The position numbers were made by a program, and so were the translations under genes. The notes beneath the pieces are model-generated. The model was given only the letters and a program-made list of their open reading frames with translations. It had not been told where the DNA came from and made no database searches. From a virus, in IMG/VR virus record IMGVR_UViG_3300025928_000014, positions 1 to 46,900 of that record: a stretch of 46,900 bases of DNA; one strand, 5' to 3'. Shown here one piece after another: positions 3,416 to 21,018 of the stretch (position 1 is the stretch's first letter; each line of letters begins with the position of its first letter).

Positions 3416-5737
3416 ATGACAGTTCCGAGCGCATGGGCCAATCCTTCCGTATGGCCTGAATACAACCCGGCCGGCGACACCGCCAACGGGCAGCTTGGCG
3501 CCTACACGCCGCAGTCGCAGACAAACGCCGTCACGCAACAGCCGACGAGCTCGGACAATCCGTTCGCGGATGTGCTGAACCATGTAGGCAACTGGCAGCC
3601 GTACACTGCGCCACCGCCACAGCCTGACAACACAACCTCGCCGAATTCGAATCCGTTCGCGAAAGCTGCTACGAACTTCAACGCCGCACCGAACAGCACG
3701 AGCCCTGATGATCCGTGGGCTCAAATGTTAGCCAAGGCGCAGAGCTATGTTTACGATCCAATCTCTGGCGCGCCTGACCTAACGGCCTACTATAAAGCGA
3801 TTCTAGGCAATGGCGCAGGCCCGCAGTCCGTCAAAAATCCAGACGATCCGGCGCTCGGTCCTGGCGATGGGTCTGGTCCGCAGCCGAATCCAGATCCGAC
3901 GACGCCAGACCCAAACGACCCCGGCAAGCATCGTGCTGCCGCGCCCGGGCAACGGCCAAGCGATACTGACTACGAAAATCTCGCGGCGTGGTACAGAAAG
4001 ACGCAGGTCGGGCCGAATGGCGACTTCAAGGGCGCTACGCCGATGGACGTCTACAACTGGCAAAAAACAGCCAGCAACGTGCCTTTCGAGCAGTGGTACG
4101 ACCAGAACGTGCGACCGCATTTACCACCCGCGCCGGCCGGTGGCGATGCTGACCCGAACGCCGCCGCAGCATGGTATAGACAATTCACCGGCTACGAAGG
4201 TGTGACGCCCGCCGATGTCGTCGAGTATCGGCAAAATCCCGGTGCGATGGATTTCGCGCAGTGGTATGACGCCAACAAACGTATTTACGACAACCAGCGT
4301 TATCCATGGCAGCCAAATCCGTTTTCTGGTGGTACAAAGCCGTTCGGGTTAGGCGCGGAGGACCCTGTCGTCGCTGCCGCGTGGTATCGCACGTTCAACG
4401 GGCCGACTGGCGATTATCACGGCGTCACCGCGATTGACGTCAACGATTACCGAGCCAGCCAAGAAGCTGCACAGGGGATGACCTTCGCCGAGTGGTACGA
4501 CAAATTTCGAAGACCCGATGTCCCGCCGGCTCCAGTCGGCGGCGACGCCGATCCCGATGTCGCCGCGAAGTGGTACGCGAAGTTCAAGGGCTACGAGAAC
4601 GTCACGGCCGACGATGTGAAGGCGTATCGTGATTGGGCGGCATCCGCATCGCCGAATGATCCTCTCGTCAAAGCATACGGCGGCCAAGTCGATTTCGCTC
4701 TATGGTATGACCTGAATCGCCGAGGCGGGGGGAAGAATCTCTATCCGTGGATGCGTCCAGATACGAATCCCGGTATGACGTGGCCGGGCGCATCTGACTA
4801 CGTTGATCCTAACGCGCCGAAAAATCCGGACCCGAACACCACGCCTCCGCCGCCTCCGCCTGGCACTGGCGCCCCTCCGCCCCCCGACAACGCGCCGCCC
4901 CCTCCGCCCCCTCCGCCCCCAAGCACGGCGCCCCCTCCGCCCAATACGACACCGCCCCCGCCACCTCCGAGTGTCACGCCACCGCCGGGCAATAACCCTG
5001 ACGCCAACATACAGAATCTCATCGACCTCTTCACCAAAAACTACACGAACAATCAGAAGCAGCCGGGGGTTGAATCGCTGCTCGATCCGATGTTTACGCA
5101 GCAGCGCCAAAACCTCATCGGTGACTTGAGGGCCGACGCGGCCGCCACTGGCGCTATCAATTCTGGTGGATTCGGCGAAAACGAAGCGTTAGCCGTGAGT
5201 AACCTTTCCGCTCAGCAATCGGGGCAGCTCGCCGGAGAGCTCGGCAAGGAATACCTCGCCGTTGTCCAGCAAAACACCGACCTCGCGAAAATCTCGACCG
5301 AGGCGGGTATGCAGCAGTACGTCACTGATCTAAATAACGACCTCGAAAAGTTCAAAGTCGTCAGTAATGATGACCTTCAAAAGTATCTCGACAACAACGA
5401 TAACATTCTTAAAAAGTACGGCATCGACACGAACGACGTGATGCAGCGCTACATCGCGAATCTCGATCTCCAAGGAAAGAAGTATCAGGCCGACAGGGCG
5501 GTAGATGCTGCGCAACTCCAAGCTGCCGCGGCCTCGGCTGCGTCCATCGCGGCATCGAATGCGGCAAACATGCGCGCTCAGCTCGAAAACCAGCTTGGTT
5601 TGGCGCAGCTTGGCGTGCAACGTGAGGCGAACATCGGCAACTTCATTCTCGGTCTGATGGGGCTCGGCGTCACGAATCTTGACCAACTCCAAAACATCCT
5701 AAACGGTCTGCCGAATGGAACCGTGGTGACGAAGTGA
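3416..5737 (+). CDS. Large ejection-type protein with four WY repeats and poly-Pro linker
   Basis: A 773-residue protein starting directly after the previous stop. Residues about 185-440 hold four divergent tandem repeats of 60-70 residues. Each begins AxWYrxF (Trp near 191, 253, 323 and 386) and ends with a dFaqWYDxnR-type motif. A poly-proline linker with repeated PPPPPP blocks covers about 476-525. The C-terminal 240 residues are Ala/Gln-rich and predicted helical or coiled coil, with an AAATGAINSGGFGE stretch of a type seen in phage injection proteins. The architecture suggests a repeat head, a flexible linker and a helical bundle, delivered with the DNA. The function is inferred from architecture and position. 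Confidence 0.6.
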   Translation: MTVPSAWANPSVWPEYNPAGDTANGQLGAYTPQSQTNAVTQQPTSSDNPFADVLNHVGNWQPYTAPPPQPDNTTSPNSNPFAKAATNFNAAPNSTSPDDPWAQMLAKAQSYVYDPISGAPDLTAYYKAILGNGAGPQSVKNPDDPALGPGDGSGPQPNPDPTTPDPNDPGKHRAAAPGQRPSDTDYENLAAWYRKTQVGPNGDFKGATPMDVYNWQKTASNVPFEQWYDQNVRPHLPPAPAGGDADPNAAAAWYRQFTGYEGVTPADVVEYRQNPGAMDFAQWYDANKRIYDNQRYPWQPNPFSGGTKPFGLGAEDPVVAAAWYRTFNGPTGDYHGVTAIDVNDYRASQEAAQGMTFAEWYDKFRRPDVPPAPVGGDADPDVAAKWYAKFKGYENVTADDVKAYRDWAASASPNDPLVKAYGGQVDFALWYDLNRRGGGKNLYPWMRPDTNPGMTWPGASDYVDPNAPKNPDPNTTPPPPPPGTGAPPPPDNAPPPPPPPPPSTAPPPPNTTPPPPPPSVTPPPGNNPDANIQNLIDLFTKNYTNNQKQPGVESLLDPMFTQQRQNLIGDLRADAAATGAINSGGFGENEALAVSNLSAQQSGQLAGELGKEYLAVVQQNTDLAKISTEAGMQQYVTDLNNDLEKFKVVSNDDLQKYLDNNDNILKKYGIDTNDVMQRYIANLDLQGKKYQADRAVDAAQLQAAAASAASIAASNAANMRAQLENQLGLAQLGVQREANIGNFILGLMGLGVTNLDQLQNILNGLPNGTVVTK

Positions 5738-18602: not shown

Positions 18603-19131
18603 TTGCGACTCCTTTCGGATCAATGCCGACTTCCGCGCAAGCATCTTTCCAGCGCTCCCATCGACCCTCATGCGACTCGCGAACGAACGATGCCGCCCAC
18701 ATCTCAAATCGCGCCCTCGCGCCGCTGTTCGTATCCGGATCTCCCTCGGCGTTGATAAACGCAGCAACCGAAACGGCGCGTTCCCGAATCATCTCCTCGC
18801 GAGACAGTTCTTTCGTCGCCGTCTTCGTCGGGACGAGCGTCGCTTCCCAATCGCGCCAGTTGTGCATGAACGTCTTGAGGTTCATCGGCTGGCGCCATTT
18901 CTGATCGTCACGAGCGAGGAAGGCGATGTATAGCCGCTTCGTTGTCTGAATGCGCTTTGGCGCTTCTACACCAAGCTCTAAACGATCAGCAGTGTAATAC
19001 TTCAGCGCCTGTTCGCGTCCGATCTGATTCGGATAGCCCGCACGCACCTCGTCGAATTCGGCCTCATAATCGAGCGGCGGCGTTGCGAAGAGGGCATCCA
19101 TGGCGGCTTTCGGGAGTTTAGCGCGGCGCAT
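18577..19131 (-). CDS. Replication-organiser C-terminal-domain-like protein
   Basis: A 184-residue protein from the ATG at 19131; the frame extends upstream only as Arg/Ser-rich shadow of the Ro60 gene, with which it overlaps by 14 bases. The segment FDEVRAGYPNQIGREQALKY followed by a LKTFMHNWRDWE motif matches the domain found at the C-terminus of many phage replication initiator or helicase-loader proteins. Here it occurs without an obvious initiator domain. It may recruit the host helicase. The family call rests on these two motifs. Confidence 0.5.
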   Translation of the reverse strand: MRRAKLPKAAMDALFATPPLDYEAEFDEVRAGYPNQIGREQALKYYTADRLELGVEAPKRIQTTKRLYIAFLARDDQKWRQPMNLKTFMHNWRDWEATLVPTKTATKELSREEMIRERAVSVAAFINAEGDPDTNSGARARFEMWAASFVRESHEGRWERWKDACAEVGIDPKGVANGIHERLA

Positions 19132-20500
19132 CGGTCGATTCCAGCACGCGAATGTAGTCGATGACGGCTTCGGACCAGCCGTCGATGTGGTGCCACTTCC
19201 GCTTGTAGCCGGCGCCGTTCTGATAGGCCGCCACGTTGATAACGTACGCGCGCGCTGCGATTGGGGCCGGTAGCGCGTCGTGCGACTGCTCATCCGTGAT
19301 AACAATCAGTCGGTCGTGCGGCGACCGGTTCGCGTAGGTTACGGCACGACCGGTGTACGTTGAACTGTGCGACTGACTCCGATTGATGGCGTCGCGCAGC
19401 GCAAATCCGTGTCGCCTCGGGATGTCTACGTTGCGCTCCGAAAACGAGACGACTTGAACGGATTCGCACACTTCGCGGAGAAGGATAGCCAGACCGCACG
19501 CAGCATCCATGCGCTGTAAATCGCTCTTCGCGGAGATCGGAGAATCCATCGATCCCGAGACGTCCACGAGCAACACCGTGCGCCCGCTCAACTTCTCCGC
19601 GTCTCCAAGGCACTTCAGCATCGCCGGTTCGATTGCATCTTCCAGCCTCGGAGCGTACCGCGCTGCGGCGATGAAGCGGAACGGCAGAACACGCTCTGTC
19701 TTCATCGTCGCGAGTCCAGCGCGAATTGCCACCTCATCAACACCCGCCTGTTGCATATTGCGAAGGTTGCGCAGGAGTGCAAGCGCGCCTAGCTTGCCTT
19801 CCATAAGCAGCCGCGTCCACTCGGCCTTCTTTTGATCGGCGGGAGCGGCAGAGATCGCGACCTCCCACGTATCCGGCGTTTCGAGAGTGCGATTGACGAC
19901 GGCGGCGAACAACTCGGACCCGTCTGGCGCAGGCGCCCCGGCCTTCCGCGCCATCTTCGTGTAGCCGCGAACTGCCTTTGCCGGTCGGGCGTGCGATAGA
20001 AACAACACGTCACGCAGCTTCACGGCCTCGTCACGGTCGTACTTCGCGAGTTGGTACGCGTCGAATTTTAAGAATGCCGCCGCAAGCCCCTTCTTCACCT
20101 GGGCAGAGAGCGGTTGCTTACCATCCCTCCAGTAGATCGCGAGGAACTCGGTCAGCTCGTCGGCGCGCTGAATGACGCGAGCGAGCGTCTTCGATACGAG
20201 GCCGGGCGCCACATCCTTGCGTCGCGCCAATTCGCGCACCAGGAAGAGCGGCACGTGACGGAGCTTCTGTTTCTCTCGCGCGTCGACGGCGATCTCTGCG
20301 ACGACCTCGGCGGGCACCTTGGAGACTGATTCGGCGATGATCTCGGCCTGCGACACGCCATCGATGTAGAACTGATTCTCCCACAGCATGCAGGCCATCA
20401 CGACGCGCCGGAGCTGGAGTTCCGCGTTGATGCGCACGGCGGGCGCGCCTTCGTGAGTCGTGATCTTCGGAGCGGGAATCTTGACGTTGAGTTTCGCCAC
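19118..20500 (-). CDS. rsr: Ro60-like TROVE/vWA protein (Rsr)
   Basis: A 460-residue protein, close to the length of bacterial Rsr proteins. GTG start with GGAGG five bases upstream. The N-terminal 290 residues form a helical-repeat TROVE domain (RRVVMACMLWENQFYIDG, LFLVRELARRKD, RLLMEGKLGALALLRNLRNM, LPFRFIAAARYAP). The C-terminal von Willebrand A domain has an intact metal site: DVSGS at 313-317, TYTG near 381-384 and ITDEQ with Asp403. Ro60 forms a ring that binds misfolded RNA and Y RNA; in Deinococcus its Y RNA tethers it to PNPase. The Y-RNA-like array immediately upstream on the same strand supports this identity. It lies among replication and recombination genes of the early operon. 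Confidence 0.92.
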   Translation of the reverse strand: MAKLNVKIPAPKITTHEGAPAVRINAELQLRRVVMACMLWENQFYIDGVSQAEIIAESVSKVPAEVVAEIAVDAREKQKLRHVPLFLVRELARRKDVAPGLVSKTLARVIQRADELTEFLAIYWRDGKQPLSAQVKKGLAAAFLKFDAYQLAKYDRDEAVKLRDVLFLSHARPAKAVRGYTKMARKAGAPAPDGSELFAAVVNRTLETPDTWEVAISAAPADQKKAEWTRLLMEGKLGALALLRNLRNMQQAGVDEVAIRAGLATMKTERVLPFRFIAAARYAPRLEDAIEPAMLKCLGDAEKLSGRTVLLVDVSGSMDSPISAKSDLQRMDAACGLAILLREVCESVQVVSFSERNVDIPRRHGFALRDAINRSQSHSSTYTGRAVTYANRSPHDRLIVITDEQSHDALPAPIAARAYVINVAAYQNGAGYKRKWHHIDGWSEAVIDYIRVLESTDAPR

Positions 20501-20514
20501 GCTACCTCCAAAAG

Positions 20515-20565
20515 TAAGCCGAGGAACAAGCGGATGCGGAGCTTTTTGCAGAAGTAACCGCGGCC
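20515..20565 (-). ncRNA. Third Y-RNA-like element, degenerate
   Basis: The 10-base core CGGTTACTTC, shared with the two elements upstream, occurs here (20551-20560 as its complement). GCGG at 20558-20561 can pair with CCGC at 20530-20533 or 20536-20539, closing a short hairpin that contains TGC/GCA. CGCTTGTTCC at 20523-20532 is repeated at 20731-20740 after unit 1. It lies within the leader of the Ro60 gene. It may be a truncated Y RNA or an autoregulatory Ro60-binding site. Confidence 0.4.
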
Positions 20566-20594
20566 TTCACCATCGGCAGTTAGTGTCTACTGAC

Positions 20595-20710
20595 ACACGC
20601 GGTGATTTGTTCTTTTGCTCTACCAGCCTGAGCTAACGCCACACGAGGCGACGTGACGGATTCGAACCGCCGACCCTAAAGATTAGGAAGTAACCGCCTG
20701 CTACGCCACG
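20595..20710 (-). ncRNA. yrlA: YrlA-like Y RNA with circularly permuted tRNA domain
   Basis: Reading the minus strand, all tRNA parts occur in permuted order with exact sizes. They are: anticodon-stem 3' strand TCTTT (20682-20678), variable loop AGGGTC, T arm GGCGG-TTCGAAT-CCGTC (20671-20655), acceptor strand ACGTCGC (20654-20648), closing loop CTCGT, acceptor strand GTGGCGT (20642-20636; 7 pairs, two of them G-T), TA as bases 8-9, D arm GCTC-AGGCTGGTA-GAGC (20633-20617), A26, and AAAGA (20615-20611) pairing with TCTTT. Below it GCGGT (20697-20693) pairs with ACCGC (20603-20599) to form the probable Ro-binding stem. There is no free CCA end. This matches the known YrlA tRNA mimic. Confidence 0.85.
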
Positions 20711-20734
20711 CAGATGATTCGAAAGTCAGGGGAA

Positions 20735-20825
20735 CAAGCGAAGCCGGTAACAGTCGTGCGCTGCCGCCCGAAGACGACCCGCTTCCGTCTTCCAAAAAGA
20801 AGTAACCGACCCCTACGCCACCCGA
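20735..20825 (-). ncRNA. Y-RNA-like element with hairpin effector domain
   Basis: A 23-base stretch (complement of 20799-20821) matches the 5' part of the YrlA-like element (20687-20709) at 20 of 23 positions, including CGGTTACTTC. GTCGGT (20810-20805) pairs with ACCGGC (20748-20743), with a mismatch then further pairs, like the second element's stem. Inside, GAAGACG/CGTCTTC (20770-20792) forms a perfect 7-bp hairpin with a nine-base loop. A TTTCGAATC T-loop-like word occurs after it, near 20717-20725. It appears to be a Y RNA with a simple hairpin instead of a tRNA domain. Boundaries are approximate. Confidence 0.6.
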
Positions 20826-20847
20826 CGCTAATTTTCAAAAGATCAGA

Positions 20848-21018
20848 CTACGAAAACAGCCACGCGAGCAACTTCACGAATGCCTTGGCGTCGCACGCGT
20901 TCGTACCGCTCTCCATCCGGCAGAGCGTGGATGCCGAGATGCCGATCTCCTTCGCGAGCGCACGTTGGTCTACCTCGCGCTTGAATCGGTACGCTTTGAG
21001 TGCTTCGCCAATTCGCAT
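20848..21018 (-). CDS. Small XRE-family HTH regulator (Cro/CI-like)
   Basis: A 56-residue protein made almost entirely of one lambda-repressor-type helix-turn-helix: IGEALKAYRFKREV, then LAKEIGISASTLCRMESG with the recognition helix at about 30-38. It lacks any dimerisation or cleavage domain, like Cro proteins. It lies just upstream of the Y RNA array and Ro60 gene, so it might control that part of the operon, or act with the second HTH gene at 28381 as a switch. No strong ribosome site is visible upstream of the ATG. Confidence 0.75.
   Translation of the reverse strand: MRIGEALKAYRFKREVDQRALAKEIGISASTLCRMESGTNACDAKAFVKLLAWLFS

What the first reader, a model, noticed from the sequence alone, without database searches (positions are those of the whole stretch)
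20599..20697. Circularly permuted tRNA mimic (YrlA type) with every tRNA element in register
On the minus strand T arm, closed 7-bp acceptor, bases 8-9, D arm, base 26, five-pair anticodon stem and six-base variable loop all occur with canonical lengths, but the acceptor ends are joined by a CTCGT loop and the chain opens at the anticodon stem. A random sequence would not give all of these. The published YrlA structure has the same design. The closed acceptor means it cannot be aminoacylated but could engage tRNA-modifying or processing enzymes.
Basis: partly seen in the sequence, partly recalled or inferred. Interest (0 to 1): 0.88.

Follow-up and report, generated by a model that had tools for sequence, protein, structure and literature searches.

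The report
Phage Y-RNA array beside Ro60
The sequence is a real, circularly permuted tRNA look-alike, the middle of three tandem Y RNAs that a tailed phage encodes just ahead of its own Ro60 (RNA-binding ring protein) gene; related loci show that such arrays swap different modules, some with complete anticodon arms, onto one common Ro60-binding stem.

Summary
A covariance model built from 17 relatives, window excluded, finds one place in the window: 20611-20682 (-), 44.7 bits, E=8e-15, all pairs intact. Rfam's YrlA model hits the same place below its cut-off (34 of 69 bits). The next gene, 19118-20500 (-), is a phage Ro60, and the element is the middle of three tandem Y RNAs: Y-A 20725-20826, Y-B 20586-20714 (the finding), Y-C 20518-20577. 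The same array design precedes Ro60 in most relatives examined (491 units, 175 loci). Searches by RNA pattern alone land on Ro60-bearing contigs in 22 of 25 and 8 of 8 cases. Modules are interchangeable: none, classic tRNA mimic (Y-B), a conserved non-tRNA module (Y-A), or, in relatives, permuted tRNAs with a canonical anticodon arm (55 of 185 against 1.3 expected). Weak points for Y-B: the 'five-pair anticodon stem' loses to a local hairpin when folded (p 0.007 against 0.98), and its 3' Ro-binding strand is degenerate. Most likely role: scaffold RNAs of a phage Ro60 particle. Effector recruitment is inferred.

The parts
20611..20682 (-). tRNA-like module of Y-B: open anticodon stem, variable loop, T arm, closed acceptor, bases 8-9, D arm, base 26
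   Evidence: Only hit of model R1 in the window, 44.7 bits, E=8.4e-15
20586..20714 (-). Y-B, whole Y RNA (the finding): helix I 20714-20710/20590-20586, 5' box TGGCGTAG 20708-20701, helix II 20700-20694/20602-20596, UUACUUC 20693-20687, tRNA-like module
   Evidence: Folding; 5' box score 26.8 bits, at the 69th percentile of 491 units; RF02553 hit; 3' box degenerate
20725..20826 (-). Y-A, Y RNA with a conserved non-tRNA module
   Evidence: Detector total 58.9; highest score in 1 Mb of shuffled sequence 23.1
20754..20788 (-). Module A inside Y-A: ACGGAAGCGG[GUCGUC-UUCG-GGCGGC]AGCGCACGA
   Evidence: Recurs in Y units of 10 more viral loci and one Bacillota MAG; covariation; 8 of 8 records found by the motif pattern and tested carry Ro60
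20518..20577 (-). Y-C, mini Y RNA without tRNA-like module
   Evidence: Detector total 59.1; outer stem GCCGA/UCGGC; ends 8 nt before the GGAGG of the Ro60 gene
20505..20509 (-). GGAGG, likely ribosome-binding site of the Ro60 gene
   Evidence: Sequence, a few nt before the GTG start at 20500
19118..20500 (-). Ro60 / Rsr-like protein, 460 aa, HEAT-like ring plus vWA domain with DxSGS metal site
   Evidence: Pfam TROVE 1e-10 and vWA_Ro60 2e-7; phrog_850 2e-54; profile match to the TROVE proteins 9l5y and 9kop 5e-47; predicted fold (pLDDT 82) matches 9kop, 9l5y, 1yvp and 2nvo
20848..21018 (-). Small helix-turn-helix protein, 56 aa, upstream of the array; possible regulator
   Evidence: PF13560 5e-7

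Best explanation
A tailed phage encodes a Ro60 ring protein and, directly upstream on the same strand, three tandem Y RNAs that share one Ro60-binding base (helix I, GGYGNAG internal loop, 7-bp helix II, UUACUUC / CGYUUGUUCC) but carry different heads: module A (Y-A), a circularly permuted tRNA mimic (Y-B) and no module (Y-C). I propose that the array is transcribed with, or just ahead of, Ro60; that Ro60 binds and stabilises the units; and that the heads bring partners to the Ro60 ring. For the tRNA-like head the partner would be a host enzyme that handles tRNA or structured RNA, PNPase being the precedent from Deinococcus. The phage would thereby redirect RNA decay or quality control during infection. 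Shown by sequence: the array, the structures, the Ro60 gene and their co-occurrence. Inferred: Ro60 binding (about 0.8), effector recruitment (about 0.4), PNPase as the effector (about 0.3).
For: R1 hit E=8e-15 and RF02553 hit. Strong covariation in relatives. Ro60 as next gene, same strand. 491 units in 175 of 189 Ro60 loci examined, 151 loci with two or more, 454 units upstream and 34 downstream; no shuffled-sequence unit reached the threshold. Blind searches by RNA pattern find Ro60 on 22 of 25 records and 8 of 8, and the outer and inner stems, which were not part of the mini-Y pattern, pair (4.8 of 5 and 6.2 of 7 against 2.8 and 4.2 when partners are shuffled). Folding predicts helix I, helix II, T, acceptor and D arms of Y-B. 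Precedents: the YrlA base binds Rsr and YrlA carries D and pseudouridine (review PMC8394870); Rsr is tethered by Y RNA to PNPase (PMC7790460, PMC8394870).
Against: Y-B's 3' Ro-binding strand (GUGUGUCA instead of CGYUUGUUCC) scores in about the lowest 5% of units, so Y-B may bind Ro60 weakly. RF02553's gathering score is not reached (34 of 69), though no phage relative scanned reaches it either (best 55.9). No convincing sigma-70 promoter near the array (1 found, 0.9 expected). No expression data. No evidence here that any effector binds.
Confidence: 0.62

Rival explanations
1. The tRNA-like Y RNAs are decoys: bound and protected by Ro60, they occupy host tRNA-targeting enzymes such as anticodon nucleases, so the array is a counter-defence locus.
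For: In relatives 55 of 185 tRNA-like units carry a 5-bp, 7-nt anticodon arm with U33 (1.3 expected), and position 37, which was not selected, is a purine in 55 of 55. A paper on the Salmonella operon proposes YrlA as competitive inhibitor of an anticodon nuclease (PMC7790460, read). Titles and abstracts report that phage tRNAs counter tRNA-targeting defences (PMC10264068, PMC11555353).
Against: Y-B has no canonical anticodon loop, and Y-A and Y-C carry no tRNA part. In Salmonella YrlA was not a substrate of the nuclease (PMC7790460). Similar units occur in many bacterial contigs.
Confidence: 0.15
2. The array is mainly a cis-regulatory leader: Ro60 binds the units in its own mRNA, Y-C next to the ribosome-binding site, and represses its own translation.
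For: Y-C ends 8 nt before GGAGG; units lie upstream of Ro60 in 454 of 488 cases, often a few nt apart.
Against: Elaborate, varied heads with tRNA tertiary-contact residues are not needed for this; 34 units lie downstream of Ro60. The two roles are compatible.
Confidence: 0.15
3. A permuted tRNA gene, or the junction of two decayed tandem tRNA genes (3' half of one, 5' half of the next), without Y-RNA function.
For: R1 also matches junctions of tandem tRNAs, for example in L019 and L022, which suggests how such modules may arise.
Against: Acceptor strands pair 7 of 7 across a 5-nt loop, with no CCA or room for processing; no tRNA in the window; both flanks are Y-RNA sequence; Ro60 is adjacent; the same module covaries in relatives.
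Confidence: 0.03
4. Chance resemblance.
For: The anticodon stem alone could be chance.
Against: E=8.4e-15 for the module; unit detector totals of 58.9 and 59.1 for Y-A and Y-C against a shuffled maximum of 23.1.
Confidence: 0.01

Closest known systems
Bacterial Y RNA YrlA (Rfam RF02553; Salmonella structure 6CU1)
   Same: Ro60/Rsr gene adjacent; basal stem with an internal loop; circularly permuted tRNA-like head with T arm, closed acceptor and D arm (PMC8394870, PMC11472068).
   Different: Below the RF02553 gathering score; different 5' box; degenerate 3' box in Y-B; lies in a three-unit array with two other head types.
Y RNAs of mycobacteriophages and suspected Y RNAs of Listeria phage CKA15
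   Same: Phage-borne Y RNAs have been reported or suspected near an Rsr-like gene, in CKA15 as three abundant non-coding transcripts (PMC12282133, citing Chen et al. 2014).
   Different: CKA15 is only a suspicion there. In its relative P100 neither PF05731 nor RF02553 found anything. The primary mycobacteriophage paper was not readable here.
Deinococcus Rsr-Y RNA-PNPase particle (RYPER)
   Same: Proposed working model: a Y RNA tethers Ro60 to an exoribonuclease (PMC7790460, PMC8394870).
   Different: No PNPase partner shown for the phage; several head types.
Ro60 of Thermus phage phiLo (9L5Y)
   Same: Phage Ro60, solved structure; the predicted fold of the window protein matches it (E=6e-17, TM about 0.68).
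   Different: About 26% identity; no YrlA-like RNA detected around it.

Membership tests
Bacterial Y RNA (YrlA type) | Encoded next to a Ro60/Rsr gene | tested here: met
   Ro60 is the next gene on the same strand
Bacterial Y RNA (YrlA type) | tRNA-like head: T arm, closed acceptor, D arm, permuted order | tested here: met
   R1 hit with every pair intact; positions read from sequence
Bacterial Y RNA (YrlA type) | Basal Ro60-binding stem with conserved motifs | tested here: inconclusive
   5' box typical (26.8 bits), helix I and II predicted; 3' box degenerate. Y-A and Y-C have both boxes
Rfam RF02553 as curated | Gathering score of 69 bits | tested here: not met
   34.0 bits; so not filed as an RF02553 member in Rfam's sense. 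No phage relative scanned reaches it
Bacterial Y RNA (YrlA type) | Bound by the cognate Ro60; modified by TruB and Dus enzymes | not testable with these tools
   Needs binding and modification assays
Ro60/Rsr protein | TROVE ring plus vWA domain with metal site | tested here: met
   PF05731, PF25045; DVSGS at residues 313-317; fold match to Ro60 and Rsr structures
tRNA or processed permuted tRNA gene | Free acceptor end with CCA or processing sites | tested here: not met
   Acceptor strands joined by a 5-nt loop; ARAGORN finds no tRNA

The most novel reading that the evidence does not exclude
Ro60 loci of phages and bacteria carry tandem Y-RNA arrays whose head modules are swapped like plug-ins. 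Besides the known tRNA mimic opened at the anticodon loop, they include circularly permuted tRNAs with a canonical anticodon arm, opened between nt 26 and 27 (and, in some bacterial loci, inside the D loop), and a conserved non-tRNA module present in this window. The anticodon-bearing forms act as baits or decoys for tRNA-targeting enzymes.
Probability: 0.22. Interest if true: 0.85.

Novelty: new variant of a known kind. Interest (0 to 1): 0.6.

Why it matters
It shows a phage Ro60 gene with its own set of Y RNAs, gives a consensus that finds such RNAs without reference to Ro60, and explains some phage 'tRNA' annotations as Y RNAs. The finding that one Ro60-binding stem carries exchangeable heads, some with real anticodon arms, makes the open question of what Y RNA heads recruit directly testable by comparing units of one array.

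Tried and rejected
ARAGORN: no tRNA in the window. A strict search for units opened in the D loop gave 0; a looser one gave 7 against 0.9 expected, of which I accept about 6, in bacterial loci only. Listeria phage P100: no TROVE or YrlA match. Thermus phage phiLo: no YrlA-like RNA near Ro60. Promoter and terminator scan uninformative. PADLOC: no defence-system match for Ro60 and three other proteins. The key Y RNA papers (Chen 2014, Sim and Wolin 2018, Sim 2020) are not held, so novelty of arrays and anticodon arms could not be checked against them.

Full report
What is there. On the minus strand, 20682-20611 holds a circularly permuted tRNA-like module: UCUUU / AGGGUC / T arm GGCGG-UUCGAAU-CCGUC / acceptor ACGUCGC-CUCGU-GUGGCGU / UA / D arm GCUC-AGGCUGGUA-GAGC / A / AAAGA. 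The positions used for tRNA tertiary contacts are present (U8, A14, G15, G18G19, C48, T-loop UUCGA). ARAGORN reports no tRNA. Rfam's YrlA family hits 20700-20593 with 34.0 bits, E=1.6e-5 in an 801-base search, below its gathering score of 69.

Is it chance? I collected relatives through the neighbouring protein, aligned 17 tRNA-like modules of the same type without the window (A3) and counted pairs: 95% of cells pair, 17 of 21 pairs show changes on both sides, covariation score 0.71 against 0.21 for shuffles and at most 0.15 for slid structures. These units had been chosen partly for pairing, which favours the structure, but the margin is large. The model built from them finds exactly one place in the window, 20611-20682 (-), 44.7 bits, E=8.4e-15, with no non-standard pair (E-values from this short calibration are rough).

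The next gene on the same strand (19118-20500) is a Ro60/Rsr protein: Pfam TROVE and Ro60 vWA, phrog_850, profile match to solved TROVE proteins at 5e-47. Its predicted fold (pLDDT 82) matches the TROVE structure 9kop, Ro60 of Thermus phage phiLo (9l5y), vertebrate Ro60 and Deinococcus Rsr. The window is a 46.9-kb virus record with a weak terminase match, RecT, exonuclease VIII and RusA, that is, a tailed phage.

An array, not a single RNA. Upstream regions of Ro60 in relatives show a repeated unit: outer helix I, TGGYGNAG, a 7-nt helix II strand, UUACUUC, a variable insert, the helix II partner, CGYNUGUUCC, the helix I partner. A detector using both boxes and both helices finds 491 units (453 distinct sequences) in 175 of 189 loci examined, against a highest score of 23.1 in 1 Mb of Markov-shuffled sequence (threshold 24) and 19.5 antisense. 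The boxes were learned from the same loci, so I made two blind tests. A pattern for mini Y RNAs, run over IMG/VR without any Ro60 information, gave 25 records, 22 of which encode Ro60; helices I and II, not part of the pattern, pair 4.8 of 5 and 6.2 of 7 on average against 2.8 and 4.2 with shuffled partners. A pattern for the Y-A module gave 8 records with the Y context that I tested, all 8 with Ro60. Some of these records overlap with those fetched through the protein. Of the loci with units, 151 have two or more and 105 mix tRNA-like and other units; 454 units lie upstream and 34 downstream of Ro60.

The window's three units are Y-A (20725-20826), Y-B (20586-20714) and Y-C (20518-20577), about 8-10 nt apart; Y-C ends 8 nt before the ribosome-binding site. 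Y-A and Y-C score 58.9 and 59.1. For Y-B the detector paired the typical 5' box with a wrong 3' partner, because the real 3' strand (GUGUGUCA) is degenerate, in about the lowest 5% of units. Folding Y-B alone nevertheless gives helix I (p 0.75-0.90), helix II (0.90-0.98 with one G-G mismatch), T (0.98-0.99), acceptor (0.6-0.7) and D arm (0.71).

The anticodon region. Y-B's open stem UCUUU/AAAGA has p=0.007 in that ensemble; a local hairpin CCUAA/UUAGG takes its place. Folding programs do not know tRNA tertiary contacts, so this is not decisive. Across relatives two architectures are real. Opened at the anticodon loop, as in classic YrlA: 44 of 100 units with at least 4 of 5 pairs at the exact register, 5.6 expected. 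Closed anticodon arm, opened between nt 26 and 27: 55 of 185 with 5 pairs, a 7-nt loop and U33, 1.3 expected; in these, position 37 is a purine in 55 of 55, position 38 A in 44 and position 32 C in 37, none of which was selected for; GUU is the commonest anticodon. Related sequences are not independent, so counts are not probabilities, and part of the stem uses the UUC of the conserved UUACUUC box. A third type, opened in the D loop, is seen in about six bacterial loci. Y-B belongs to the first class by its five pairs, with a 6-nt variable loop.

Y-A's module. ACGGAAGCGG-stem-AGCGCACGA recurs at the same place in Y units of ten other viral loci and one Bacillota MAG. Its apical stem ranges from 3 to 6 pairs with GNRA or UUCG loops, and four pairs show double changes. 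No Rfam family matches it. I do not know what it binds.

How it probably works. Established for other bacteria: the YrlA base binds Rsr, its head is modified by DusA and TruB, and in Deinococcus a Y RNA tethers Rsr to PNPase (reviewed in PMC8394870; PMC7790460). By analogy the phage Ro60 binds this array and the heads recruit partners; the Y-B head would attract tRNA-handling enzymes or PNPase. Rivals: a decoy for tRNA-targeting defences (suggested for YrlA in PMC7790460, and attractive for the anticodon-bearing relatives, less so for Y-B), and autoregulation of Ro60 through its leader. These are not exclusive.

Known or new. The tRNA-mimic design is known, and phage Y RNAs have been reported or suspected (PMC12282133 discusses three abundant transcripts near an Rsr-like gene in a Listeria phage). 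The array with exchangeable heads, the conserved non-tRNA module and the anticodon-bearing permuted tRNAs appear in no text I could read, but the primary Y RNA papers are not held, so novelty is provisional. Y-B by itself is a new member of a known kind; the array is a variant.

Noticed in passing
L001:2289-2418 (Xanthomonas phage 10KY502B), L004:1624-1788 (Caulobacter phage CcrColossus): Annotated tRNA-Thr (L001 2292-2359) and tRNA-Gln (L004 1628-1695) lie inside Y-RNA units; they look like misannotated permuted tRNA mimics.
   Followed up: partly
L001, L002, L004, L013, L018, L019, L022 and others: Y units whose tRNA-like head has a canonical anticodon arm (for example UUCGA-CUGUUAA-UCGAG), 55 of 185 parsed units against 1.3 expected.
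   Followed up: yes
L141, L148, L152, L158, L166, L185: Y units in which the tRNA seems opened inside the D loop: D 3' strand at the 5' end, D 5' strand at the 3' end.
   Followed up: partly
window 20754-20788 and L009, L010, L138, L218, L221, L225, L236, L272, L302, L310, L317: Conserved non-tRNA module GGAAGCGG-stem-AGCGCACG in Y RNAs; function unknown.
   Followed up: partly
L026:4481-4562 and 4724-4863 (Bacteroides phage crAss001): Two candidate Y-RNA units of modest score (29 and 34) just downstream of the phage's TROVE gene.
   Followed up: no
L013, L019, L022 tRNA arrays: The permuted-tRNA model also matches junctions of tandem tRNA genes, a possible origin of the modules.
   Followed up: no
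L008:1696-2089, L015:4027-4386: tmRNA genes close to phage Ro60, in L015 reported as permuted.
   Followed up: no
window 20848-21018 (-): A 56-aa helix-turn-helix protein just upstream of the array; larger HTH proteins also precede Ro60 in L003, L004 and L024.
   Followed up: no
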